Shown here: positions 8,046 through 20,858 of the stretch, piece by piece
How positions within the stretch are numbered: position 1 is the stretch's first letter
Layout of the letters: each line of letters starts with the position of its first letter
Origin: Pseudomonas sp. Leaf58
GTDB lineage: Bacteria; Pseudomonadota; Gammaproteobacteria; Pseudomonadales; Pseudomonadaceae
NCBI RefSeq assembly: GCF_003627215.1
Contig: NZ_CP032678.1
Location: forward strand, 124,001-188,000
Length of the DNA stretch: 64,000 nt
Direction of reading: 5' to 3'
Position numbers and translations under genes: made by a program
Notes under the pieces: model-generated
Seen by the model: only the letters and a program-made list of their open reading frames with translations
The model's database searches: none
Told to the model about the DNA's origin: nothing

Positions 8046-8624
8046 ATGCACCTGACCTACGATCAATTGCCGGTGAATGCCCTGGATACCACGGCGGTAG
8101 ATGCGCAGCGCAGCGAAGCACTGTTCATCACCCTCAGTAAAACACTGATCGACAGCTTGGCGCGGTTCTTCGAAGGCAAGCGTGTACTGGAGTGCTATGC
8201 CGGTCGTGGTCACCTCAGTGCCCTGCTTCAACAGCAGGGGATTAACATCAAGCCCACCAGCCTGCAAATGGGCCATGATCAGACCGCCGAGCTCGGCTAT
8301 GTCACCGAGGTCGAGATTTTGAGTGTGCTGGAGGCGGTGAACAAGTACCGCGATTGGATGGATGTGCTGCTGGTGGCCTGGCCAATCTCCGATGAATCCC
8401 TGTACCGGGTTCTGCCAGAGCTGCCTGCCGGCTGCCCGATCGTGTTTATTGGCGAGGTGACCGACTACACCCTCCAGCCATTTCCATTCCTGGGTGGGTG
8501 CGCCAGCGATCGATTCTTCGACGCAGTGCAGGAGCAGCCCGAGCTGACCGCGCAGCTTAAATACCCGACTCGCCGGCAGGACACGATCAAGGTCTTTCAG
8601 TACGTCGAGCCAATAAACGATTAA
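8046..8624 (+). CDS. Methyltransferase-like (Rossmann) protein, 192 aa
   Basis: Residues around 47-60 read VLECYAGRGHLSALL, a class I SAM-methyltransferase motif I (E/DxxxGxG variant with AGRGH). Downstream come an acidic segment (DVLLVAWPISDESLYRVL) in the place of motif IV and GCPIVFIGEVTDYT as a following strand. The substrate cannot be told from the sequence. The start at 8046 is preceded by GTGAGAG. It is monocistronic between the rtcB terminator and the 8637 promoter. A catalytically inactive Rossmann protein remains possible. Confidence 0.55.
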   Translation: MHLTYDQLPVNALDTTAVDAQRSEALFITLSKTLIDSLARFFEGKRVLECYAGRGHLSALLQQQGINIKPTSLQMGHDQTAELGYVTEVEILSVLEAVNKYRDWMDVLLVAWPISDESLYRVLPELPAGCPIVFIGEVTDYTLQPFPFLGGCASDRFFDAVQEQPELTAQLKYPTRRQDTIKVFQYVEPIND

Positions 8625-11990: not shown

Positions 11991-12662
11991 ATGACCACTA
12001 CCAATAGCAACATCGAACTGGCCAAAAACGACAAGCTTATGAAAATGGAGCTGCGCCTGAAGGACGATGGCAAAATCCACGCCTTCCTGCGCGAAACCAC
12101 GGCAGACGGCGTAGAACTGCCCGTGCGCATGGCTTACGTCGACAAGATCGGCGACGGCGAGAACGCGTTCTTTGTCGTCAAAGCGCCAATGCGTGAAAAG
12201 AATGAAGACGGCAGTTTCAAGACCCGTGCCCGCCAGAAGGATGGCAAGTTCCTCGATGCCCAGGGCAAGGAAGTCGAAAGCGAAGACCAGGCCGAGCGCC
12301 AGTTTGTGCTGCTGACTCAACGCAACGACCCGACCAAGCTGGTCTACGGCCAGATCGGCACCTTGAACATCAAGAACTTCAAGGTGGACAAAACCCCAAC
12401 CGCCATGACCCTCATCACTGCCAAGCTGTGGAGCGACGAGGATGCGTTGGCTGCTGAGCGCATCGCGTTCCGCATGAGCGCCCTGGGCGCAGAGCATGCC
12501 GATTACCCAGCCTTGCAACAGGAGCTGAAGGACTTCCGTCGCAGCACCGGATCCTTTGCTGATTTCTTCATCAACAAAGGCCATCCGATCCTGCGCGATA
12601 TGGGGTTCTCCATCCGTGAGCGCGCCAAGCCAGGCGTTACCTCGGAAGCTGAACTGGGTTAA
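11991..12662 (+). CDS. Hypothetical soluble protein, 223 aa, next to ssb
   Basis: A highly charged protein (NDKLMKMELRLKDDGKIH, FKTRARQKDGKFLDAQGKEV) with a clear AGGGGAAACGGC ribosome site. No known motif is seen. It lies immediately before ssb but has its own promoter and terminator, so it is not in the ssb transcript. Position beside two SSB genes suggests a DNA-metabolism role; that is inference only. Confidence 0.7.
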   Translation: MTTTNSNIELAKNDKLMKMELRLKDDGKIHAFLRETTADGVELPVRMAYVDKIGDGENAFFVVKAPMREKNEDGSFKTRARQKDGKFLDAQGKEVESEDQAERQFVLLTQRNDPTKLVYGQIGTLNIKNFKVDKTPTAMTLITAKLWSDEDALAAERIAFRMSALGAEHADYPALQQELKDFRRSTGSFADFFINKGHPILRDMGFSIRERAKPGVTSEAELG

Positions 12663-12748: not shown

Positions 12749-12777
12749 TTGACGACCGGGTATAGGATCCCTATACT
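12749..12777 (+). promoter_or_regulatory. Type-A promoter of ssb
   Basis: TTGACG and TATACT with a 17-base spacer containing GGGTATAG. The 20 bases upstream (aaatcgctttaaatatatat) are identical to those in front of the second SSB gene, so an upstream element is conserved too. The transcript carries the CACAACGCGAG element at 12818-12828. Confidence 0.8.
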
Positions 12778-12839
12778 TTGAATCGTGAACTGGCAACAAC
12801 TAGTCAGACACTCAAATCACAACGCGAGAGGCAAAACCC

Positions 12840-13337
12840 ATGAAAAAGCATATCGTCGTCGGCAACCTGGTTTCCGCAGTTTCCATCTCCAGCCAAAATG
12901 GCCGTGACACCGCCGCCATGACCGTTGCGGTCAACGAGTTCAAGAAAGCTGACGGCACCCAGGTCACCAGCTACCACTCGATCGTCGCCACTGGCAAATC
13001 GGGCTTCCTGGACAACGTCAAGGAATACCTGACCAAGGGCAAGGGCGTCACCGTGGTGGGTACCCCGTTCCTGAGCGAGCGTGAGAAGGACGGCCATGTC
13101 TACCGCAACCCAGGCATCCGCCTGACCCGCCTGGGCGATCTGCGCTTCACCGGCCAGGACATCGCCGCCGCCCCGGTCTCCGGTTCGGCACAGGAGCAGA
13201 AATCGCCTGAGCAAATCGCTGCCGAGCAGCAGGCCGCCGAACTCGCCCAGTCGGTTCAGCACCAGGCTTCGCCACAACCGGCAGGCAACGCCCCGGCAGC
13301 GGATTTCGACGGCCATGATGATGATATTCCGTTCTGA
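12840..13337 (+). CDS. ssb: Single-stranded DNA-binding protein
   Basis: A 165-residue SSB: an OB-fold N-terminal domain (about 1-110: KHIVVGNLVSAVSIS, AAMTVAVNEFKKADGTQV, TKGKGVTVVGTPFLSER), a Gln/Ala-rich flexible linker, and the acidic tip DDDIPF at the extreme C-terminus. That tip binds SSB partner proteins in replication and repair. The ribosome site is GCGAGAG in the shared leader element. The OB domain is divergent from chromosomal SSB, as in plasmid SSBs. Confidence 0.92.
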   Translation: MKKHIVVGNLVSAVSISSQNGRDTAAMTVAVNEFKKADGTQVTSYHSIVATGKSGFLDNVKEYLTKGKGVTVVGTPFLSEREKDGHVYRNPGIRLTRLGDLRFTGQDIAAAPVSGSAQEQKSPEQIAAEQQAAELAQSVQHQASPQPAGNAPAADFDGHDDDIPF

Positions 13338-13391
13338 GTGAGTATCATTCGCATCTAGACTTTACGGTTTAGATGCGCTGAGAATCCAGTA

Positions 13392-13424
13392 AAGCCCTGT
13401 TAATTCAGGGCTTTTCTGTTTTTG
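13392..13424 (+). terminator. Terminator after ssb
   Basis: AAGCCCTG TTAATT CAGGGCTT followed by TTCTGTTTTTG. A second inverted repeat, GCATCTA...TAGATGC, lies just upstream at 13351-13376. Confidence 0.85.
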
Positions 13425-13506
13425 TTTTACAAAATGGTCTAGGTAGCTTTTCGGGCGCTTAGAGTTACGGGATAGCATTAAATTGGTTAAGGGTCATGGG
13501 GGTAGC

Positions 13507-13812
13507 ATGAACGTCAATCTGCCATTTCTGGTGTTCGGTCAAAACGCCCTGGGGGACAGGGAGGTGGCCGTGGTCGAGGTGGATATCTCGGTGGCTCACT
13601 ACCTGGCTGGGGAGCATTACGCCGAGGCCGCGCTACTGGCCCAAGAGCAGGGCCTGAAGCCGCCGATGGTTGCGTTTGGCCCCGAAGAAGTGGGGATCTT
13701 GGCGGATTCCCTGGGTACGCTCAAACAGCTCCTGGTGGGCCGCGAGCGTCTGCAGCTGCTGTTGCAGCGCGCCAGGCAATACGATCTGAAAAATATTCGA
13801 GAAATTGCGTAA
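13507..13812 (+). CDS. Hypothetical protein, 101 aa
   Basis: The ATG at 13507 follows GGGGG. A soluble protein with a beta-rich N-terminus (MNVNLPFLVFGQNALGDREV) and a helical Leu/Gln/Arg-rich C-terminus (LKQLLVGRERLQLLLQRARQ). No family recognised. It sits between the two SSB genes. Confidence 0.6.
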   Translation: MNVNLPFLVFGQNALGDREVAVVEVDISVAHYLAGEHYAEAALLAQEQGLKPPMVAFGPEEVGILADSLGTLKQLLVGRERLQLLLQRARQYDLKNIREIA

Positions 13813-13829
13813 ATCGCTTTAAATATATA

Positions 13830-13858
13830 TTGACGTCTGGGTATAGCATTCATATACT
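13830..13858 (+). promoter_or_regulatory. Type-A promoter of the second SSB gene
   Basis: TTGACG and TATACT, 17-base spacer with GGGTATAG, and the same upstream 20-mer as the ssb promoter. It gives a leader with CACAACGCGAG at 13899-13909. Confidence 0.8.
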
Positions 13859-13917
13859 GAGAGCGTGAATTAGGGAAAACACCCTGATCCAAATAAACCA
13901 CAACGCGAGGATTCACC

Positions 13918-14292
13918 ATGAACAAAATCATTCTTTCCGGCAACCTGGCTGCTGACGTCCGTGTTGGCACCGTCAACGAAAAAACCCAGGTCATCAACGG
14001 CACCCTGATGGTGGACAACTCCTACACCAAAGATGGTCAGCGCGTCGAGCAGTCCATGGCCTACCCCTTCGCCTACTTCGTGGACACCGGCAAGACCGGC
14101 GTTGCCCCGCACCTGACCAAGGGCCGCACCATCACCATCGAAGGCAGCCTGCAGCGCCCTGAGGGCAACCTGGCCAGCAACGGCAAGACTTACCATGACG
14201 TGCAAGTCCGCGTCGACGAAATCGAACTGGGTCGCAAGCCACACGCCCAGGAAGCCGCCGAGCGCGCTGCCAACGCTGCGGCCACCGCCTAA
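13918..14292 (+). CDS. SSB-like OB-fold protein without acidic tip
   Basis: A 124-residue protein with an SSB-type start (NKIILSGNLAADVRV) and OB-fold strands (LTKGRTITIEGSLQRPEGN, YHDVQVRVDEIELG). It ends in an Ala-rich tail (AAERAANAAATA) and lacks the acidic DDDIPF tip, so it should bind ssDNA without recruiting SSB partners. It shares promoter and leader design with ssb at 12840 and may act as a specialised or accessory SSB. Confidence 0.82.
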   Translation: MNKIILSGNLAADVRVGTVNEKTQVINGTLMVDNSYTKDGQRVEQSMAYPFAYFVDTGKTGVAPHLTKGRTITIEGSLQRPEGNLASNGKTYHDVQVRVDEIELGRKPHAQEAAERAANAAATA

Positions 14293-14308
14293 CGGCCAGT
14301 GATCAAGG

Positions 14309-14331
14309 GGTGGCCTGCGGGCCACCTTTTT
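14309..14331 (+). terminator. Terminator after the second SSB gene
   Basis: GGTGGC, a short loop, GCCACC, then TTTTT. The small gene at 14361 follows, so read-through is probably needed for its expression. Confidence 0.8.
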
Positions 14332-14360
14332 CAATTCAAGTATTCGAGGTGCACCCCCTT

Positions 14361-14543
14361 ATGAGCGGTATGAGTCCGAAAAAAATAGAAACCTTGGCAG
14401 CTGAGTGGTTGGCCGGTAACGAATCCACCCGTACGCGCATCCAGCACGAGATGCGTGGCGGCACCAACCTCAACCTGCTGGTCACCGCGATCGGCAAGAA
14501 GGTTCCGGCGCCAGCGCCCGAGGCTCTGCAACAGACGGCTTGA
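14361..14543 (+). CDS. Small hypothetical protein, 60 aa
   Basis: Begins MSGMSPKKIETLAAEWLAGN with GAGGTG nine bases upstream and ends with PAPAPEALQQTA. Mostly helical and soluble. It is flanked by terminators on both sides and has no clear promoter of its own, so it may depend on read-through from the SSB-like gene. Confidence 0.5.
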   Translation: MSGMSPKKIETLAAEWLAGNESTRTRIQHEMRGGTNLNLLVTAIGKKVPAPAPEALQQTA

Positions 14544-14560
14544 TCGTTTGGGAGCAAAGA

Positions 14561-14586
14561 AGGTCAGCTTAGCTGGCCTTTTTTTA
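14561..14586 (+). terminator. Terminator after the 14361 gene
   Basis: AGGTCAGC TT AGCTGGCC followed by seven T residues. Confidence 0.8.
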
Positions 14587-14820
14587 TGCCTCAGATTCGG
14601 GATAGATGAAAATTGGTGGGCATCGGGGCATTGCCTGGAGGGGATCGCTACTTCCGGCTTGCCGGGCTGTCGTACAGGCACCCTGGGTCAGTGAGAACGG
14701 GTGATCGCGGGGCAAGCTCCAACTCATCAGGGAGCTTTGCGCCTGTTCCGGATGGGTGAGTGTTAGCCGCGAAGTTAAGATTATGGTCGACACTTATTTG
14801 ACGGTAATTTAAATAAGATA

Positions 14821-14849
14821 TTGACGTCCTGGTATAGCATCCTTATACT
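14821..14849 (+). promoter_or_regulatory. Type-A promoter without a downstream gene
   Basis: TTGACG and TATACT with 17-base spacing and internal GGTATAG, nearly identical to the SSB promoters. No open reading frame with a ribosome site lies between it and the terminator at 14958. The preceding 14587-14820 stretch holds no gene I can support. Confidence 0.75.
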
Positions 14850-14855
14850 CCCAAT

Positions 14856-14982
14856 ACAGACCAAAAATGCTGTTCGATCAGCCGCTTAGGTCAATTTTTT
14901 CTCTGCATCGGGGTCTTCCTGGTGCGCAGATTAGTGCACTCGCGTTGTGCTAATCTTAGGGCTCTTCGGAGCCCTTTTTTTC
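14856..14982 (+). ncRNA. Candidate small RNA, about 125 nt
   Basis: The transcript is defined by the type-A promoter (14821-14849) and the intrinsic terminator (14958-14982). Inside are a first stem-loop, AGATTAG-TGCAC / GTGCTAATCT (14928-14956), and the terminator stem with a TTCG tetraloop. The 5' half is unstructured by eye and T-rich (tcaattttttctctgc), which would be available for base pairing or Hfq binding. No start codon with a ribosome site is present. Start and end are inferred; the mvaT-like gene downstream has its own promoter. Confidence 0.55.
14958..14982 (+). terminator. Terminator of the candidate small RNA
   Basis: AGGGCTC TTCG GAGCCCT followed by seven T residues. Confidence 0.9.
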
Positions 14983-15013
14983 GTCTGCAATTTTGAATTT
15001 GATGTATAGGTCG

Positions 15014-15042
15014 TTGACATGAATTAATTTTATTACTAATAT
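15014..15042 (+). promoter_or_regulatory. Promoter of the MvaT-like gene
   Basis: TTGACA and TAATAT separated by 17 bases, in very AT-rich DNA of the kind H-NS-type proteins bind, so autoregulation is plausible. Confidence 0.65.
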
Positions 15043-15097
15043 TCTTGTCAGGCCATGAGCCATTTAATTCACCTGCGCCCTGTATGGAGTCAATCAC

Positions 15098-15466
15098 ATG
15101 AGCAAAATCGCCGAATATCGTGAACTTGAAGCTCAAATTCAGCTTCAAGCGGCCCGCCTGGAAGAACTTCGCCCGAAGTACGAAGCCACTGAAGTACTGG
15201 TTGATCTGATTCTTTCCGAAGCCAAAGAGAAAGGCCTGGATCTGGAAAGCATCGCCCTGGCCATTGCCCCTCACCTGGGCAAGGCATCTGGCAAGACCGC
15301 CGCCATCGCCGGCGTTACCCGCACCCCGCGTAAAGCACGGGTGGTGAAAAAGTACAAGAATCCGCACAGCGGTGAAACCGTCGAAACCAAAGGTGGCAAC
15401 CACAAGGTGTTGAAAGAGTGGAAGGCCCAGTACGGCGCCGATGTTGTAGAAGGCTGGCTGGAATAA
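15098..15466 (+). CDS. MvaT/MvaU-family H-NS-like silencer
   Basis: The 122-residue protein has the MvaT layout: an N-terminal coiled-coil oligomerisation region (about 1-60, SKIAEYRELEAQIQLQAARL), a linker, and the C-terminal DNA-binding domain with the family signature KKYKNPHSGETVETKGGNHK followed by LKEWK and VVEGW. MvaT proteins bind AT-rich DNA and silence foreign genes in Pseudomonas; plasmid copies such as Pmr of pCAR1 lower the cost of carrying the plasmid. Chromosomal MvaT is 124 aa, so this copy is full length. It has its own promoter and terminator. Confidence 0.94.
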   Translation: MSKIAEYRELEAQIQLQAARLEELRPKYEATEVLVDLILSEAKEKGLDLESIALAIAPHLGKASGKTAAIAGVTRTPRKARVVKKYKNPHSGETVETKGGNHKVLKEWKAQYGADVVEGWLE

Positions 15467-15481
15467 CAGCCTTTTCAAAGA

Positions 15482-15505
15482 AACCTCGCCTCGGCGGGGT
15501 TTTTG
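15482..15505 (+). terminator. Terminator after the MvaT-like gene
   Basis: AACCTCGCC TCGG CGGGGTT then TTTTG. Confidence 0.8.
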
Positions 15506-15589
15506 TTTATTGGTATATTTAGTTGTAAGGAACCGGCGTACCACTCATGTTGTTCGTTGTCAGTTGTTGATCTGATCATTAGAGCGCTT

Positions 15590-15616
15590 GGCCATCCCTG
15601 TGATGGCCTTTTTCTT
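15590..15616 (+). terminator. Second, orphan terminator downstream
   Basis: GGCCATC CCTGT GATGGCC followed by TTTTTCTTTTC, 85 bases after the MvaT-like terminator. Only a 7-codon frame lies in between (ATG at 15548), so the segment may be another short transcript or a back-up terminator. Confidence 0.6.
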
Positions 15617-15631
15617 TTCTGCATTCGCAAT

Positions 15632-15659
15632 TTGACAAGCAATGTATACCAAGTATACT
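15632..15659 (+). promoter_or_regulatory. Promoter of the small membrane-protein cluster
   Basis: TTGACA and TATACT with a 16-base spacer containing GTATACC; related to the promoter at 19697. Confidence 0.7.
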
Positions 15660-15688
15660 CACGCTCAGTATTCATTGGAGTATGGATT

Positions 15689-15940
15689 ATGATCCGCGTG
15701 CATCATAAACCCAGGAGCCGAGACCTGGGCTCGCTGGTGGGATGGGCACTGTGTATTGCCGGCGCCTTCGTAGGTGCACTGCTCATCTACTTTGGCTTGT
15801 CCTCGGGCCAGGTAGACACCGAGCCGAAGGCGCTGGTAACCACCCTTCTGGGCGTCAGCATCGTACTCTTCTTTGTTGCGGGTTTACCGAAAGGCGCCCG
15901 CTCGTGCAGTTCGGACAAGCCGCCGCACACCAACAGATAG
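15689..15940 (+). CDS. Small membrane protein, 83 aa
   Basis: The ATG at 15689 has GGAG nine bases upstream and a strong promoter 30 bases before. Two membrane segments are visible: LGSLVGWALCIAGAFVGALL and ALVTTLLGVSIVLFFVAGL, with a basic N-terminus and a Cys/Pro C-terminal tail. Function unknown. It starts a run of three closely packed small membrane-protein frames. Confidence 0.6.
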   Translation: MIRVHHKPRSRDLGSLVGWALCIAGAFVGALLIYFGLSSGQVDTEPKALVTTLLGVSIVLFFVAGLPKGARSCSSDKPPHTNR

Positions 15941-15946
15941 CCGGGT

Positions 15947-16276
15947 GTGGCAGAGCCTGACTTTGCCCGCCCAGGAGACCGCCATGCTAGCGCCCAAGCT
16001 CACTCCTCCCGCTTCGTGCCTATCGTGCGCACCTTCCCTACAGCATCCCCCGCGCCTGAAGCGCTTGCTCAGGTGTGCCGGGCCCTGATCTTTCTGATGG
16101 TAAGCCTGGGGGCCTCTATTGGTGCCTCCCACACCCATAGCTTCCTTGCGCTGCCAGGCTATCCCGTGGTGGCCATTGAGCTCCTGGTGATCTGCCTGGC
16201 CATTGCCCTCTGCGCGCTTATCAGCTGCGTATTGGCTGCTGTGCACGCCGTCCGCCTGGCGTTCAGCCATGGCTAG
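15947..16276 (+). CDS. Small membrane protein, 109 aa, GTG start
   Basis: The frame opens with GTG six bases after the previous stop. It contains two hydrophobic segments: VCRALIFLMVSLGASIGAS and IELLVICLAIALCALISCVL. The start is uncertain: a well-placed ATG with AGGAGA (15984) is in another frame and gives only 34 residues (MLAPKLTPPASCL...). The hydrophobic pattern supports this frame. Coupled to its neighbours on both sides. Confidence 0.45.
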   Translation: MAEPDFARPGDRHASAQAHSSRFVPIVRTFPTASPAPEALAQVCRALIFLMVSLGASIGASHTHSFLALPGYPVVAIELLVICLAIALCALISCVLAAVHAVRLAFSHG

Positions 16277-16388
16277 TGTGCTGGCCCGGTGCAAGCGCGG
16301 CTGCATGCGCGTTCTCTACGCATTGGTTTCCGTGTTGCTATGGCTTAAAAACCTGATCTCGACCAAGCATGACCACATGGGTTTGTAG
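16269..16388 (+). CDS. Very small membrane protein, 39 aa
   Basis: The ATG at 16269 overlaps the stop of the upstream frame by eight bases. The peptide has a basic, Cys-containing N-terminus (MASVLARCKRGCMR) and one membrane segment (VLYALVSVLLWLKNLI). Overlap and composition suggest a translationally coupled single-pass peptide, but it is too short for certainty. Confidence 0.35.
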   Translation: MASVLARCKRGCMRVLYALVSVLLWLKNLISTKHDHMGL

Positions 16389-16519
16389 GGGTGATGGGTG
16401 GTTATGAAATTGGTCTTGATGTGCTGGCTTTACATTGAATTTCATGGCTACAATGAAATCATCAACCACCGCTGAGCCGCCGCCCAGCGACTCTGCAATC
16501 CCTCTCAGGAGTACCGCAC

Positions 16520-16678
16520 ATGAGCCAAGCACAAGCTGCCGCCGCCGCTAAACCAGCCATCAGCTGGGATGAAGACATCGCCGACAACGACGAAGGTTTT
16601 GTCCTGGAAAGCGACCAGGCAGCCGATGTTCCCAAAGCCTGCTCGATCGACAATCCGGAATGCGAAGCCTGCACTTAA
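16520..16678 (+). CDS. Small acidic protein with Cys-rich C-terminus, 52 aa
   Basis: A 52-codon frame with an excellent AGGAG eight bases upstream, so it is very likely translated. An Ala-rich start (SQAQAAAAAKPAIS) is followed by a strongly acidic stretch (WDEDIADNDEGFVLESD) and a C-terminus with three cysteines (ACSIDNPECEACT). No family is assigned. The C-terminal Cys pattern could bind metal or be a modification site. It is followed by its own terminator. Confidence 0.6.
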   Translation: MSQAQAAAAAKPAISWDEDIADNDEGFVLESDQAADVPKACSIDNPECEACT

Positions 16679-16698
16679 GCTGCGCCTCGCTGGTGATC

Positions 16699-16724
16699 AA
16701 AGCCCGACACGTTCGGGCTTTGTG
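16699..16724 (+). terminator. Likely terminator after the 16520 gene
   Basis: AAAGCCCGA, short loop, TCGGGCTTT; the T-run is poor (TGTGCATTTT). Confidence 0.55.
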
Positions 16725-16763
16725 CATTTTGAATGGCCATTTTGGCAAATATTGGGTTGCTGG

Positions 16764-16793
16764 TGTCAATATACGGGTATATTATCCGTATAC
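16764..16793 (+). promoter_or_regulatory. Variant type-A promoter before the zinc-ribbon gene
   Basis: GTCAATATACGGGTATATTA followed by TCCGTATACC aligns with the GGGTATAG-ATCC-TATACT part of the SSB promoters, but lacks the TTGACG box. The leader downstream carries CACAACGCGAG at 16832-16842, as in the SSB genes. Confidence 0.45.
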
Positions 16794-16850
16794 CCACTAA
16801 GGGTCACAGAAGCCATCAGGCTCGGTCACACCACAACGCGAGAGACAGCC

Positions 16851-17075
16851 ATGCATACACTCGATACCCCTCTGGCGGCTGGTCAGAGTCTGGTTTGCCC
16901 CCACTGCAATGCCGATCAGGGTGAGCAGGTTGAAGACTTCGTCATCCCTGGTCGCGTCGGCGAGGCCTCGGCGTGCACCGACAGCTGCTGCAGCTGCGGC
17001 GCCCCCTTCCGCGTGGTGTGCGTGGAGCCGAGTAAGTTCCTGGTGTCCGTTGCCGACGCTGATCTTGTGGCGTAA
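16851..17075 (+). CDS. Zinc-ribbon-like protein, 74 aa
   Basis: The product has two Cys pairs in ribbon spacing, CPHC (about 16-19) and CCSCG (about 46-50), joined by an acidic/Gly stretch, and a beta-rich C-terminus. It probably binds one zinc ion. The start follows the shared GCGAGAG leader, eight bases away, placing it in the same expression group as the two SSBs and the ParB-like protein. Function unknown; small single zinc ribbons often bind nucleic acid or protein. Confidence 0.65.
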   Translation: MHTLDTPLAAGQSLVCPHCNADQGEQVEDFVIPGRVGEASACTDSCCSCGAPFRVVCVEPSKFLVSVADADLVA

Positions 17076-17084
17076 GGGGGGAAT

Positions 17085-17579
17085 ATGCACGATCGAACGG
17101 ATCTTCAAATTCAGGCAATGGCTGTTGCCATGTGGGCCAACTACATCGAAACCGGTGATGTCAGCATCAGCGCCCGCGATGCCCAGAATGCTAAACTTTC
17201 CTTCAAGGCGCTGACCACTGAACAGTCGCGTACGGTGCTGCGCTTTCGCGATCTGAGTGCCAGCTTGCTCAGGCAAGACTCGCAGCTTAATTTGGGTGCA
17301 AAAGCTGGCTTGTCAGCGCCAGCGCCAGCGGCCCAGACACCATCTTTTCAGCTGGTGTGGAGCGACGATCCACAGGCCGTCCAATCGCTGAAGGTCGGGG
17401 CAATCAAGTTCGCCACCATCAGCAATGCGGTAGTGGCGAAGAACACGCCCAGGAAATTCCAGGCAACGTTCCTGCTCAAGGGTATCAAGCCTGATCAGGG
17501 GCTGTTCGATTCGATTGAAATGGCCAGGGCACATCTGGAGCGAGCCGCGAAGGGCTGGCTTAAGGCGCTGGAGGGATGA
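17085..17579 (+). CDS. Hypothetical protein, 164 aa
   Basis: The ATG at 17085 has AAGGGGGG upstream and lies nine bases after the zinc-ribbon stop, so the two are in one operon. A soluble protein: helical N-terminus (LQIQAMAVAMWANYIETGDV), Ala/Pro linker (LSAPAPAAQTPS), and a C-terminal domain (VGAIKFATISNAVVAKNTPR). No family recognised. Confidence 0.65.
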   Translation: MHDRTDLQIQAMAVAMWANYIETGDVSISARDAQNAKLSFKALTTEQSRTVLRFRDLSASLLRQDSQLNLGAKAGLSAPAPAAQTPSFQLVWSDDPQAVQSLKVGAIKFATISNAVVAKNTPRKFQATFLLKGIKPDQGLFDSIEMARAHLERAAKGWLKALEG

Positions 17580-17738
17580 ATGATGATCAAGCAAGCGGAA
17601 TCGCTGCAAGCGCGGCGGGTCAAAGCGGTAAAGGCGGCGGCACTGGTAGTGCTGTTCGTGCTGGTCTCGTTCGCCCCATGGTCAAAAGACCATCAGCGCC
17701 ACACGGTGCCAAGCTACCAACTGCAGGTCGCCAGGTGA
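17580..17738 (+). CDS. Small single-pass membrane protein, 52 aa
   Basis: The ATG at 17580 lies five bases after GGAGG and directly follows the preceding stop. The product (MMIKQAESLQARRVKAVKAA) has a basic amphipathic start, one membrane segment (ALVVLFVLVSFAPW) and a short polar tail ending LQVAR. A competing frame from 17576 covers the same bases but is low-complexity. This frame has the better ribosome site and protein-like composition. Confidence 0.5.
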   Translation: MMIKQAESLQARRVKAVKAAALVVLFVLVSFAPWSKDHQRHTVPSYQLQVAR

Positions 17739-17875
17739 AAGGCGAGTGGCTGTCCATGGCCTTCATTGTAGGACTGGTAGCCGCCAGCTCACTGGTTAAG
17801 GCCGAGGCGGATGCTCAGGCGATCGGCGCTGCCGGTCGGCCTGCTCACTGGCACAACGCACAGTCGGGAGAATAG
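17735..17875 (+). CDS. Small membrane or exported peptide, 46 aa, GTG start
   Basis: The GTG at 17735 overlaps the stop of the 17580 frame (GTGA), and the frame runs to 17875, two bases before the next gene. The sequence has one hydrophobic segment (LSMAFIVGLVAASSLVKAEA) that could be an anchor or a signal with an AEA-type cleavage site. The same frame extends upstream to 17576, but that part looks like a shadow. Confidence 0.4.
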   Translation: MKGEWLSMAFIVGLVAASSLVKAEADAQAIGAAGRPAHWHNAQSGE

Positions 17876-17877
17876 CC

Positions 17878-18453
17878 ATGGGTATGTCTACCTGTAAGGC
17901 CGGGGTGCCGCCAGCGCCTCCGGAAGCGCTGGATGATTTCTGCTACGTGCAGCGACTGAGGCTGGCTGACGCCGACCGGCGCCCAGGCTTGCGCTTTGGC
18001 GAGGCCTTCAGTCTGGAGTACATGGGCGCCGCCGAGTACGAGTTTGGCGCCTTTGCGCGATTTTTGCGCACTGCCAATGATTGTCGCGATCACCTGGTCG
18101 AGGCCAAGGCAGTCATTGCCTACGGTGATGATCAGGTGATTTGCACGGTCACCTGCTTTTACGATCCTCAGACGCAGAGCTGGGCGCACATTGAAAAGCA
18201 GCTGACGTTGCTGGCACAAGGCAAGCTGCACACCAAGTGCGGCGCACACTTCCCTGCAGCGGACACCAGGTCACTAGCCCCTGTCAAAGGGCGCAGGAAG
18301 GCCGCTGAGCATCCGCCTAGGCCAACCACCTGCGGCTGGGTGGAGATCGGTCAGAACGTGTTCTGGACAACGTCCGAGATCACCTTGGCGCAGTATCGAG
18401 ATCTGCTGCACGCATCCGTTGAGCACATGGATGCGCAAAAGGCCCAGCAGTAG
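17878..18453 (+). CDS. Hypothetical protein, 191 aa, with EYMGAAEYEFGA motif
   Basis: GGGAG is seven bases before the ATG at 17878. The segment SLEYMGAAEYEFGAFARFL (about 53-71) resembles a recurring LEYMG-x-AE-x-EFGA motif that I recall from plasmid and phage proteins of unknown function. The rest is soluble with several Cys (CTVTCFYD). It ends the 16851-18453 gene run, after which a strong terminator follows. Confidence 0.65.
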   Translation: MGMSTCKAGVPPAPPEALDDFCYVQRLRLADADRRPGLRFGEAFSLEYMGAAEYEFGAFARFLRTANDCRDHLVEAKAVIAYGDDQVICTVTCFYDPQTQSWAHIEKQLTLLAQGKLHTKCGAHFPAADTRSLAPVKGRRKAAEHPPRPTTCGWVEIGQNVFWTTSEITLAQYRDLLHASVEHMDAQKAQQ

Positions 18454-18471
18454 GGCGTCTTGAGTTGCCAA

Positions 18472-18500
18472 GGCGCCCCTCCGTGGGGCGCTTTTCGTTT
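18472..18500 (+). terminator. Terminator after the 17878 gene
   Basis: GGCGCCCC TCCG TGGGGCGC followed by TTTTCGTTTTT. Confidence 0.8.
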
Positions 18501-18601
18501 TTCGGGGGCTGAATCAGCGCCCATCACTAGACACGCAAGCCGACCTGGCTTGCACTCAGGGCGTCCGAGGGCGGGTGCCTCGATCCACAAGGAGGGTCAT
18601 C

Positions 18602-18760
18602 GTGGTTTCACTGTTTCGCATTGCTTCACTGTTGGGCGCTGTCTGGGTCAGCTTGGCAGGGCACCATGACGTAGGATCCGGGGCGCACCTGAGTGTCCGT
18701 CGCGCCCGCACCAAAGAGCATGCTTTCCACCAGGTGCAGCGCGGCCCACAGCCAACCTGA
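18602..18760 (+). CDS. Small exported or membrane protein, 52 aa, GTG start
   Basis: An ideal AAGGAGG lies five bases before the GTG at 18602, a strong reason to believe translation. The product has an N-terminal hydrophobic helix (MVSLFRIASLLGAVWVSLAG) and a basic, His-rich polar remainder. No family is recognised. It lies between a terminator and the promoter of the tRNA transcript. Confidence 0.5.
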   Translation: MVSLFRIASLLGAVWVSLAGHHDVGSGAHLSVRRARTKEHAFHQVQRGPQPT

Positions 18761-18766
18761 AAGTGT

Positions 18767-18795
18767 TTGACAGCTCGTTTGCTTAACCATAATAT
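18767..18795 (+). promoter_or_regulatory. Strong promoter of the tRNA-Arg transcript
   Basis: TTGACA and TAATAT separated by 17 bases. The only downstream feature in range is the tRNA at 19010, so the primary transcript would have a 5' leader of about 205 bases. I see no gene in that leader. Confidence 0.6.
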
Positions 18796-19009
18796 TGAAC
18801 CCGCTTCGACGCTTCACCCCGGTAAGCTGGATAGCTGCCGACGTTTGTCTCCGCTCATTGAGTGCTGATGCCTCGGTCAGTTAACAGCCATTGACCCATC
18901 TGCGCAGGTGGCCAGGATGCCGGACGGTAAGTGTCACCCGCACATGACCTGAAGCGAATGCGCAGGTTGTGGAAGCAACGGCCACCTGGTGGGAAGGGTG
19001 GCCACTCCC

Positions 19010-19086
19010 GCGCCAGTAGCTCAGCTGGATAGAGCATCCGCCTTCTAAGCGGATGGTCGCAGGTTCGAGTCCTGCCTGGTGCGCCA
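19010..19086 (+). tRNA. tRNA-Arg (anticodon TCT)
   Basis: A 77-base cloverleaf with encoded CCA. The acceptor stem pairs GCGCCAG with CTGGTGC (one G-U). The D arm is GCTCAGCTGGATAGAGC, the anticodon arm TCCGC CTTCTAA GCGGA, and the T arm CAGGTTCGAGTCCTG. Anticodon TCT reads AGA (and AGG by wobble), rare codons in Pseudomonas. Such tRNAs are carried by large plasmids and phages and are frequent integration targets; no integrase is seen beside it. Confidence 0.95.
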
Positions 19087-19107
19087 TTTTCCCTTTGAGT
19101 AGCCTCC

Positions 19108-19365
19108 ATGACGACTGCCCATTGCGATGCCAGCCTCAGCGCCTGGCTTGAACAACACAAGCCCGCCATGCCCCGCAAGATCGCCGTTGTGCTCAGCACC
19201 AGACCGGTTGCCGTGGACGACTGCATACTGATGGTGGCTCCCTCCAGGTCTGAAAGTGCAGAACGGGCAGCCCAACCGCTTACCATGCATATTGCCAAGC
19301 CACGGCCTAGTATGGGCGAATTCACCTTCCAGTACGCCCCTGGTGCGCTGGATTTACTTCAGTGA
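19108..19365 (+). CDS. Hypothetical protein, 85 aa
   Basis: Starts 21 bases after the tRNA. Soluble, with a strand-rich middle (KIAVVLSTRPVAVDDCILMV) and no recognised motif. The ribosome site (GAGTAG) is weak. It could be cotranscribed with the tRNA. Confidence 0.45.
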   Translation: MTTAHCDASLSAWLEQHKPAMPRKIAVVLSTRPVAVDDCILMVAPSRSESAERAAQPLTMHIAKPRPSMGEFTFQYAPGALDLLQ

Positions 19366-19406
19366 GTCCTGCGGGCTTTTAGAAATCTTTCTGATGGAGC
19401 CATTCC

Positions 19407-19652
19407 ATGACCGAAACCGTGCCCGAGCCTGACTATGAAGGCATTGCCAGGGTCAAGCTGAGCTCCGCCAGGGAGTCTCAGCTGGTTGAGCTGTGCTCCG
19501 CCAGGACACTGACTCGCTCGAACGTGCGCGCCAACACCAGGGCTCTTGCTGCGCTGGTCAAGCTCGGGTTCGCTATCGAGATCACTGCTTTTGGCGAACG
19601 TGCCTGGCAGATCACTGACACCGGGCGTATCCGCTGCACAACGATCTACTGA
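19407..19652 (+). CDS. Small hypothetical protein, possible winged-helix fold, 81 aa
   Basis: GGAG lies eight bases before the ATG at 19407. The middle has a helical pattern (NTRALAALVKLGFAIEI) followed by a strand-turn (GERAWQITDTGRIRC) that looks like the wing of a small winged-helix domain (x-W-x-x-T-x-x-G). That reading is tentative. It precedes the ParB-like gene, which has its own promoter. Confidence 0.5.
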   Translation: MTETVPEPDYEGIARVKLSSARESQLVELCSARTLTRSNVRANTRALAALVKLGFAIEITAFGERAWQITDTGRIRCTTIY

Positions 19653-19696
19653 TCTCATTCCAAAACAATTTAGGTGTAAATTGGCCGGCCTGATGG

Positions 19697-19724
19697 TTGA
19701 CGGTTAGCGTATACCTAGTATACT
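19697..19724 (+). promoter_or_regulatory. Type-A-like promoter of the ParB-like gene
   Basis: TTGACG and TATACT separated by 16 bases with an internal GTATACC. The leader carries TACAACGCGAGG at 19773, matching the SSB-gene leaders. Confidence 0.75.
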
Positions 19725-19790
19725 CAAATCCATGGCCGGAACAATCGGTCTGCGCAAAGACGCATATCACATACAACGCGAGGATTTGTC

Positions 19791-20858
19791 ATGAGCGAAA
19801 TTCAGAAAGATGCCCTGTGTGATCACGTTGCGAGCCAGTTCGGCCTGAACCCAACGCTGCGCTTCAATCCAATCGCCGGTCGCGTCAAGGTGGCGATGGA
19901 AGACATCGGTACCAAGAAGGACATGTACAGCGTCAAGCTGACCGAAACCATCGTCATTGACGGCTTCAACCCGCGTATCAAAGACGAGAAGTACTGGGAG
20001 GGTATCCGCGCCCTGGCAGCGTCGATGGAAAAGCATGGCTGGTACCCTGACAAGCCACTGGCCGGCTATGCCATCAAGAAGGATGGCAAGGACGTGATCG
20101 TCGTTGTCGAGGGTGGTCGTCGTCGTGATGCCGGCCTGATGTACATTGAAAAAATGTCCAAGACCGACAAGGACTTCGCGGACAAATGGCTTGCACCGAT
20201 GGTCACCAAGAAAATGGGTACCAGCGAGCTGGATCTGCAGTACGGCCTGGCCCAGGGCAACAACACCGAACCGTTCCGTCCGTACGAGCTGGCGATTCTG
20301 TGCAAGCGCCTGTACGTGGTCTTCGACCAGACCGAAAAACAGATTGTCGAAGGGATGCAAGGCCTGGTCTCGGCCTCGCACCTGCCAAAACTGCTGCTGC
20401 TGGCATCGGCGCCCCTGGAGATCGTTGAAGCGGTCGAGTCGGGCTCCATGTCGGTGACCGAGTCCTACGACCTGATGATGGCTCACGGCGACAAGGCTGT
20501 GGAAGTTCTCAAGCAGGCGGCCCTGGTCTCCAAGGCAGCGGGCGCGAAAAAGATCATGAAAAAACACATGCCTGGCGTGAAGTTCGCAAAAGCATTGGTC
20601 AAGGAATCCCGCCCGCTCTTCGAAATGGCCGAGGAGATCCAGGCCGACGAAGGCTACCAGGCTCTGTCAGAAGGCACCCGCGCCAAGCTCGACGACATGC
20701 TGCGCGAAATCAAGGCTATGCAGACCAAGTTCGCCGAAGACGACGCCAAGATCCTGCAAGCGGCGCGTGATGCCGAGGCCGAAGCCGCTGGCCAGACCAG
20801 CCTGGACATGGCGGGTGCGGACAACGACGAAAATCTGGGTGCGCAGCAGGTCGCCTGA
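19791..20858 (+). CDS. ParB/Srx-domain protein, 355 aa
   Basis: The N-terminal region (about 50-130) fits the ParB/sulfiredoxin nuclease-type fold: a target-parameter strand (TIVIDGFNPRIKDEKY), LAASMEKHGWYPDKPL, and VIVVVEGGRRRDAGL (103-115), the equivalent of the ParB GxHR box that in CTP-binding ParBs contacts nucleotide. The middle is helical (about 175-260) and may include the helix-turn-helix; the tail is acidic. No ParA partner is adjacent, so it may be a regulator or nuclease-like ParB-superfamily protein instead of a partition protein. It shares promoter and leader with ssb. Confidence 0.72.
   Translation: MSEIQKDALCDHVASQFGLNPTLRFNPIAGRVKVAMEDIGTKKDMYSVKLTETIVIDGFNPRIKDEKYWEGIRALAASMEKHGWYPDKPLAGYAIKKDGKDVIVVVEGGRRRDAGLMYIEKMSKTDKDFADKWLAPMVTKKMGTSELDLQYGLAQGNNTEPFRPYELAILCKRLYVVFDQTEKQIVEGMQGLVSASHLPKLLLLASAPLEIVEAVESGSMSVTESYDLMMAHGDKAVEVLKQAALVSKAAGAKKIMKKHMPGVKFAKALVKESRPLFEMAEEIQADEGYQALSEGTRAKLDDMLREIKAMQTKFAEDDAKILQAARDAEAEAAGQTSLDMAGADNDENLGAQQVA

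What the first reader, a model, noticed from the sequence alone, without database searches (positions are those of the whole stretch)
12749..19791. A shared promoter and leader cassette links two SSBs, a zinc-ribbon gene, a ParB-like gene and an RNA
Promoters at 12749, 13830 and 14821 are near-identical: TTGACG, 17 bases with internal GGTATAG, TATACT; 8637, 19697, 15632 and 44596 (minus) are variants. The ssb and second-SSB copies also share 20 identical upstream bases. Four genes (12840, 13918, 16851, 19791) carry the leader element CACAACGCGAG (or TACAACGCGAGG) directly before their starts. This looks like one regulon with common timing, for example expression on entry to a new host. The internal GTATAG could be a repressor or alternative contact site.
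Basis: partly seen in the sequence, partly recalled or inferred. Interest (0 to 1): 0.75.

Follow-up and report, generated by a model that had tools for sequence, protein, structure and literature searches.

The report
Megaplasmid RNA silencing tagged SSB genes
On four giant plasmids, three of them known to be from Pseudomonas, a predicted small-RNA gene carries a stretch complementary to a short tag in front of the plasmid's single-strand-DNA-binding protein genes and one or two other genes, and tag and RNA differ together between plasmids, so the RNA likely switches those genes down by pairing with the tag.

Summary
In detail: three near-identical promoters and four leader elements lie in 7 kb of a 904-kb megaplasmid. 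A fifth copy of the element lies antisense in a hairpin of the predicted RNA (14856-14980): CTCGCGTTGTG there is the reverse complement of the leader CACAACGCGAG. Marker gene, ssb1, ssb2, RNA and mvaT recur in that order in three diverged Pseudomonas megaplasmids (pMPPla107, FeN3W plasmid, pPL1), with SSB2 only 25-42% identical. Leader and RNA change together: element position 2 is A-U here and C-G in the other three (13 of 13 cognate pairs; 18 of 39 cross-plasmid pairs). Best reading: a trans-acting small RNA that pairs at the ribosome-binding sites of ssb1, ssb2, the zinc-ribbon and ParB-like genes and represses them; it shares the palindromic promoter type (GTATA-N7-TATAC) of ssb1 and ssb2, so expression would be a pulse. 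Pairing is supported by sequence; repression, pulse and timing are inferred, with no expression data. Limits: four plasmids, possibly one or two change events, no pairing preference among the other three plasmids, and weak RNA signals in pPL1. No Rfam family reaches threshold.

The parts
12749..12777 (+). ssb1 promoter; palindrome GTATAGGATCCCTATAC (N7) at 12760-12776 covers most of the -10
12785..12811 (+). predicted 5' hairpin of the ssb1 leader
   Evidence: predicted fold; a 5' hairpin in 11 of 11 leaders folded alone
12818..12828 (+). leader element CACAACGCGAG (target tag) before ssb1
12840..13337 (+). SSB1, 165 aa
   Evidence: Pfam SSB 5.4e-11
13830..13858 (+). ssb2 promoter; palindrome 13841-13857 (N7)
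13899..13909 (+). leader element CACAACGCGAG before ssb2
13918..14292 (+). SSB2, 124 aa
   Evidence: Pfam SSB 1.7e-9
14821..14849 (+). promoter of the RNA; palindrome 14832-14848 (N7)
14856..14980 (+). predicted small RNA, ~125 nt (ends inferred from -10 and terminator)
   Evidence: fold z-score -4.29 for 14854-14985; RNA in the same place in three other plasmids
14928..14956 (+). anti-leader hairpin; predicted loop 14939-14945; CTCGCGTTGTG (14939-14949) is the reverse complement of the leader element
14958..14981 (+). intrinsic terminator of the RNA (stem-loop then T run)
   Evidence: and sequence
15098..15466 (+). MvaT/H-NS-like gene that follows the RNA in all four plasmids; not itself tagged here
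   Evidence: Pfam MvaT_DBD 2.8e-21
16777..16793 (.). palindrome GTATATTATCCGTATAC (N7) upstream of the zinc-ribbon gene; no good -35 found with it
16832..16842 (+). leader element CACAACGCGAG before the zinc-ribbon gene
19697..19724 (+). promoter of the ParB-like gene, GTATA-N5-TATAC type (19709-19723)
19772..19782 (+). leader element TACAACGCGAG before the ParB-like gene
19791..20858 (+). ParB-like protein, 355 aa (TIGR00180 match below cut-off; some relatives on plasmids annotated ParB family)

Best explanation
The cassette is the target side of a predicted small-RNA regulon: a predicted ~125-nt RNA (14856-14980), whose predicted hairpin holds the reverse complement of the 11-nt element before ssb1, ssb2, the zinc-ribbon gene and (10 of 11 nt) the ParB-like gene, likely pairs with those four mRNAs and would block their ribosome-binding sites. 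Shown: the complementarity, its position 8-11 nt before the start codons, the linked difference of element and RNA between plasmids, and the shared palindromic promoter of ssb1, ssb2 and the RNA. Predicted: the RNA's ends, its fold, the 5' hairpin of the leaders and a partly single-stranded element. Inferred: the loop nucleates a kissing contact that extends to a 9-11 bp duplex reaching the GAG/GAGG ribosome-binding site, translation falls, and because the RNA and the ssb genes fire from the same promoter class the proteins are made in a pulse that the accumulating RNA ends. A DNA-binding repressor at GTATA-N7-TATAC is inferred as the common input.
For: Element in 4 leaders and, antisense, once in the RNA, against 0.13 expected in the window. 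RNA with promoter, hairpins and terminator, fold z -4.29, 0 of 200 shuffles as stable. The block recurs in pMPPla107, the FeN3W plasmid and pPL1, with tagged leaders and an RNA before mvaT. Longest exact complementarity of RNA to its own leaders: 11,11,11,10 here; 10,9,10 pMPPla107; 9,9,8 FeN3W; 9,9,9 pPL1; dinucleotide-shuffled RNAs reach the summed value in 0, 0, 6 and 1 of 400. Position 2 pairs in 13 of 13 cognate and 18 of 39 cross-plasmid combinations; position 1 in 11 of 13 and 12 of 39. This plasmid's four leaders bind their own RNA seed at -18.1 to -19.7 kcal/mol and the other three seeds at -12.4 to -16.0. On whole plasmids, 3 of 4 CCAACGCGAG sites in pMPPla107 and 3 of 4 in FeN3W are the ssb1, ssb2 and ParB-like leaders. 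SSB2 is only 25-42% identical across these plasmids. With a TTG[A/T]C -35 and an exact palindrome, the N7 promoters are ssb1, ssb2 and RNA in this plasmid and in pMPPla107, and those three plus one in FeN3W.
Against: No transcript or protein data. Only four plasmids; the linked difference at position 2 sets this plasmid against the other three and may be one event. Among the other three plasmids cognate pairs are not preferred: pMPPla107 leaders bind the FeN3W seed better (-19.2 to -19.6) than their own (-16.8 to -17.2), pPL1 leaders bind the pMPPla107 seed about as well or better than their own, the FeN3W ssb leaders match the pMPPla107 RNA over 10 nt and their own over 9, and the third pPL1 leader matches our RNA over 10 nt and its own over 9. 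Positions 10-11, nearest the ribosome-binding site, pair in only 7 of 13 each. Two of the 13 leaders (zinc-ribbon here, third in pPL1) were found by the motif itself. The ParB-like relative in pPL1 (30%, 77.7-78.6 kb minus) has no CCAACGCGA near it, and the zinc-ribbon relative in pMPPla107 has no tag in leader position. In pPL1 the element sits 12-13 nt from the ssb starts with a separate GAGG downstream, the RNA is longer (~353 nt), its promoter lacks the palindrome and such promoter matches are near chance there (2 found, 0.9 expected), and its SSB1 is a sub-threshold Pfam match (E 0.0069). Mean unpaired probability of the element is only 0.47-0.80. The stem that holds part of the seed must open.
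Confidence: 0.75

Rival explanations
1. The RNA activates its targets: pairing at the element remodels the leader or protects the mRNA from decay and raises translation.
For: A stable 5' hairpin precedes the element in 11 of 11 leaders folded alone, which could tie into mRNA stability; RNA and ssb genes share a promoter type.
Against: The element touches or contains the ribosome-binding site in most leaders, and no common leader helix that the RNA would open stood out in the predicted folds.
Confidence: 0.12
2. The transcript is only an attenuated 5' leader of mvaT, and the complement of the ssb element is incidental or serves mvaT regulation.
For: The RNA lies directly before mvaT in all four plasmids and ends in a terminator.
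Against: A separate promoter-like site follows the terminator (by eye in the sequences; found by the tool in pPL1); 11-nt complementarity that differs in step with the ssb leaders is not explained.
Confidence: 0.06
3. Copy-and-paste cassette: promoter and leader were duplicated among genes and the element is a translation enhancer or protein-binding site, with no RNA pairing.
For: ssb1 and ssb2 share 25 identical upstream bases; in FeN3W 125 nt upstream of the two are 86% alike.
Against: Duplication does not explain the antisense copy in the RNA hairpin, nor why the RNA differs in step with the leaders between plasmids; the ParB-like promoter is of another type yet carries the element.
Confidence: 0.07

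Closest known systems
Trans-acting sRNAs that expose an anti-Shine-Dalgarno loop (RNAIII type; recalled)
   Same: Hairpin loop complementary to the ribosome-binding region of several mRNAs; discrete gene with terminator.
   Different: Plasmid-borne; all targets here carry one uniform 9-11 nt tag, and ssb1, ssb2 and the RNA share the promoter type; no sequence match (best Rfam scores far below gathering).
FinP-type plasmid antisense RNAs (recalled)
   Same: Plasmid-coded RNA pairing through hairpin loops at a ribosome-binding region.
   Different: FinP is transcribed opposite its target; this RNA lies apart from all four targets.
Plasmid-encoded sRNAs of pNDM-HK (PMC5880898; search listing and start of abstract only)
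   Same: sRNAs coded by a plasmid.
   Different: Other plasmid and RNAs; sequences and targets not compared here.
Plasmid ssb and leading-region genes expressed early after transfer (recalled; RP4 zygotic induction PMC7314908, listing and start of abstract only)
   Same: Plasmid SSB and partner genes coordinately regulated.
   Different: No evidence here that this block is a leading region; no RNA regulator is part of what I recall for those systems.
pMPPla107-type Pseudomonas megaplasmids
   Same: Same gene order, promoter palindrome, leader element and RNA.
   Different: Nothing known was found about the RNA: the feature table used holds no RNA genes in any case, and term searches of two pMPPla107 papers found no mention of sRNA, small RNA or ssb.

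Membership tests
Trans-acting base-pairing small RNA | own promoter and intrinsic terminator | tested here: met
   for three plasmids; in pPL1 the promoter is not above chance
Trans-acting base-pairing small RNA | complementarity to several separate mRNAs near the start codon | tested here: met
   13 leaders in 4 plasmids, 11 of them chosen by gene, 2 by the motif
Trans-acting base-pairing small RNA | pairing kept by matched changes | tested here: met
   positions 1 and 2; few independent events, and no cognate preference among the other three plasmids
Trans-acting base-pairing small RNA | not a coding transcript | tested here: inconclusive
   No ORF of 50+ codons starts 10-200 nt after the -10 in this plasmid or FeN3W; pMPPla107 shows a 93-codon frame there. 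Smaller frames not tested
Trans-acting base-pairing small RNA | transcript detected; target level changes; Hfq dependence | not testable with these tools
   no expression data
FinP-like cis antisense RNA | transcribed from the strand opposite its target | tested here: not met
   RNA at 14856-14980, targets elsewhere on the same strand
Known Rfam family | score above gathering threshold | tested here: not met
   only a tRNA in the window; best local hits E 0.22-0.58, far below gathering
Single-stranded-DNA promoter (Frpo type, recalled) | promoter formed by folded single-stranded DNA | not tested
   the N7 palindrome could fold, but this was not examined

The most novel reading that the evidence does not exclude
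The tag and loop form an RNA address code for megaplasmid identity: a resident plasmid's RNA silences the SSB and ParB-like establishment genes of an incoming plasmid carrying the same tag, an RNA-based exclusion system that would treat pMPPla107, FeN3W and pPL1 as one group and this plasmid as another through matched changes at element positions 1-2.
Probability: 0.12. Interest if true: 0.85.

Novelty: new variant of a known kind. Interest (0 to 1): 0.62.

Why it matters
Megaplasmids near 1 Mb are poorly understood, and how they set the level of their own SSB proteins is open. A plasmid RNA that controls two plasmid SSBs and a ParB-like protein through one uniform tag would be a compact, testable control of plasmid establishment or maintenance, and the loop/leader differences between plasmids give a ready-made specificity test.

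Tried and rejected
Gapped duplex scan of all gene starts against the whole hairpin: the script had an edge bug, gapped duplexes were noisy and in the part of the output shown the true leaders were not clearly on top; not used. String scan with a loose start-codon rule: with the full 11 nt, 4 of 5, 2 of 2 and 2 of 2 sites fall in 'leader position' (this plasmid, pMPPla107, FeN3W), but one of our 4, at 377075 minus, lies in an uninterrupted reading frame (by eye); with 10 nt 6 of 9, 3 of 6 and 3 of 4; with 9 nt the counts 8, 6 and 4 lie inside the range of 60 permuted elements (maximum 12, 13, 10), so only near-full elements are informative. Viral contigs: 19 promoter-leader pattern hits, none judged relevant from the printed context; the 223-aa marker protein, none. 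Phages: marker protein, none. Genomes: ParB-like at E<=1e-20 in 8 of 398 genus genomes, all but our own at 28-34% identity, their leaders not read; promoter-leader pattern in 1 of 398, our own; marker protein in 2 of 398 family genomes (ours and G609, whose coordinates match the FeN3W plasmid), 1 of 392 relatives (ours), 1 of 56 of G609's genus (G609) and 1 of 254 of the order (ours). Vibrio megaplasmids: in 28 kb of each of 3 of 4 records the marker homologue is present without the syntenic block, though one neighbour on the other strand is annotated SSB in one record. Leaders of the 33-35% ParB-like relatives on other Pseudomonas plasmids were not read.
Full report
WHERE. The window is bases 124001-188000 of contig C2 (904,163 bp) of a two-contig, 6.3-Mb genome.

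OBSERVATION. The three promoters are real and exceptional: 3 matches at up to 3 mismatches in 64 kb, none in shuffles, one more in the whole genome. ACAACGCGAG occurs 5 times in the window against 0.13 expected: four times before the named starts, and once on the minus strand at 14939-14948. In the whole genome there are 13 copies, 8 of them elsewhere and, by eye, none of these with an ATG 7-13 nt downstream.

THE RNA. From the promoter at 14821 a transcript would start near 14856 and end at a terminator with a T run near 14980. The predicted fold of 14854-14985 is unusually stable (-47 against -31.9 +/- 3.5 kcal/mol for 200 shuffles, z -4.29). The third hairpin (14928-14956) holds CTCGCGTTGTG, the reverse complement of CACAACGCGAG; seven of these bases form the predicted loop, the rest the 3' arm. 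Rfam gives nothing above threshold.

RELATIVES. In this plasmid, pMPPla107 and FeN3W the order lytic transglycosylase, marker protein (223 aa here), ssb1, ssb2, RNA, mvaT, ParB-like is kept, with other small genes between. Leaders read T/C-CCAACGCGAGGA in pMPPla107 and T/A-CCAACGCGAGGA in FeN3W; the RNAs hold GATCGCGTTGGA and CCTCCGCGTTGGA in a hairpin. The FeN3W RNA also holds a second, 8-nt complement (to ACGCGAGG). pPL1 has marker, ssb1 and ssb2 with ACCAACGCGAA, a third tagged gene at 102.9 kb, and a hairpin TTGACCTACCGCGTTGGTCAA before mvaT. All six SSBs of the three relatives match Pfam SSB, pPL1 SSB1 only below the cut-off (E 0.0069). SSB2 is 25-42% identical to ours, so the 9-11 nt match is not simple lack of divergence. 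Not shared: the pPL1 ParB-like relative (30%) has no CCAACGCGA near it, and the pMPPla107 zinc-ribbon relative (36%) has no tag in leader position.

LINKED CHANGE. Over 13 leaders in 4 plasmids (11 chosen by gene, 2 by the motif), element positions 3-9 never vary. Position 2 is A here (4 of 4) with U in the RNA, and C elsewhere (9 of 9) with G in the RNA: 13 of 13 cognate pairs form, 18 of 39 cross-plasmid pairs form. Position 1 pairs in 11 of 13 cognate (C-G, U-G, U-A, A-U) and 12 of 39 cross-plasmid cases. Positions 10 and 11 pair in 7 of 13 each. Counts are by sequence, not by event: position 2 may be a single change on each side. Duplex energies separate this plasmid from the other three (own leaders -18.1 to -19.7 with their own seed, -12.4 to -16.0 with others) but do not separate the other three from one another; pMPPla107 leaders even bind the FeN3W seed better than their own. 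RNA shuffles reach the observed complementarity in 0, 0, 6 and 1 of 400 (this plasmid, pMPPla107, FeN3W, pPL1).

LEADERS. The 11 leaders with an assigned promoter (of 13; the zinc-ribbon and third pPL1 leaders were not folded) are all predicted to begin with a hairpin when the untranslated part is folded alone; with 60 nt of coding sequence 9 keep it, and those of the ParB-like gene here and of FeN3W ssb1 rearrange. In these longer folds the element is unpaired with mean probability 0.47-0.80. The element's last base lies 7-13 nt before the start in all 13, 8-11 nt in this plasmid.

PROMOTERS. GTATA-N-TATAC was counted at spacings 0-15. This plasmid: N5 7, N7 5, against 0.42 expected per spacing, with 1 each at N11 and N13. 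pMPPla107: N7 7 against 0.65, with 1 each at N2 and N5. FeN3W: N5 4, N7 4 against 1.12, with 3 at N12, 2 at N2, 1 at N14. N7 is clearly enriched in the first two and modestly in FeN3W; N5 clearly only here. Of the 5 N7 sites here, 4 belong to this cluster: ssb1, ssb2, RNA, zinc-ribbon. The fifth (779153) and a FeN3W site (64960) precede related genes (39% identity over 130 aa, E 3.5e-30); a 34% relative in pMPPla107 at 851.6-851.9 kb has none of the listed N7 sites. The pattern suggests a dimeric repressor; none was identified.

MECHANISM. The simplest account is an RNA that pairs at the ribosome-binding site of its co-regulated targets and lowers their translation, giving a pulse of SSB1, SSB2 and partner proteins when the promoter class is opened. 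Pairing is supported by sequence; repression, pulse and any link to conjugation are inferred.

LITERATURE. Eight searches of an open-access library (some lists capped, empty) listed no paper whose title or abstract start describes this RNA or tag; two pMPPla107 papers were searched for terms only. Subscription papers and preprints were not covered.

Noticed in passing
own contig C2 779153 (minus) and FeN3W plasmid 64960 (plus): N7 palindromes precede related genes of unknown function (132 and 135 aa, 39% identity over 130 aa), a possible conserved transcriptional co-member without the leader tag.
   Followed up: yes
window 11991-12662: 223-aa protein without a Pfam or NCBIfam match, just before ssb1 in all four megaplasmids; 24 homologues found in a 5.8-billion-protein set, and distant ones in Vibrio megaplasmids outside this block.
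   Followed up: partly
L023:10690-10743 and L041 about 8460-8494: mvaT leaders of FeN3W and pPL1 hold CCAACGCA, 7 nt of the tag, perhaps a weaker target; not seen before mvaT here or in pMPPla107 (by eye).
   Followed up: no
L068:1501-2066 (pPL1 102.9 kb): A third tagged gene in pPL1 of unknown function (MNWKNVMW...).
   Followed up: partly
window 19010-19083: Plasmid-borne tRNA gene, 91-94% identical to stretches on very large Acinetobacter and Pseudomonas records in the plasmid collection.
   Followed up: no
L023 10511-10610: FeN3W RNA carries a second complement of the tag (CCTCGCGT) upstream of the main hairpin.
   Followed up: no
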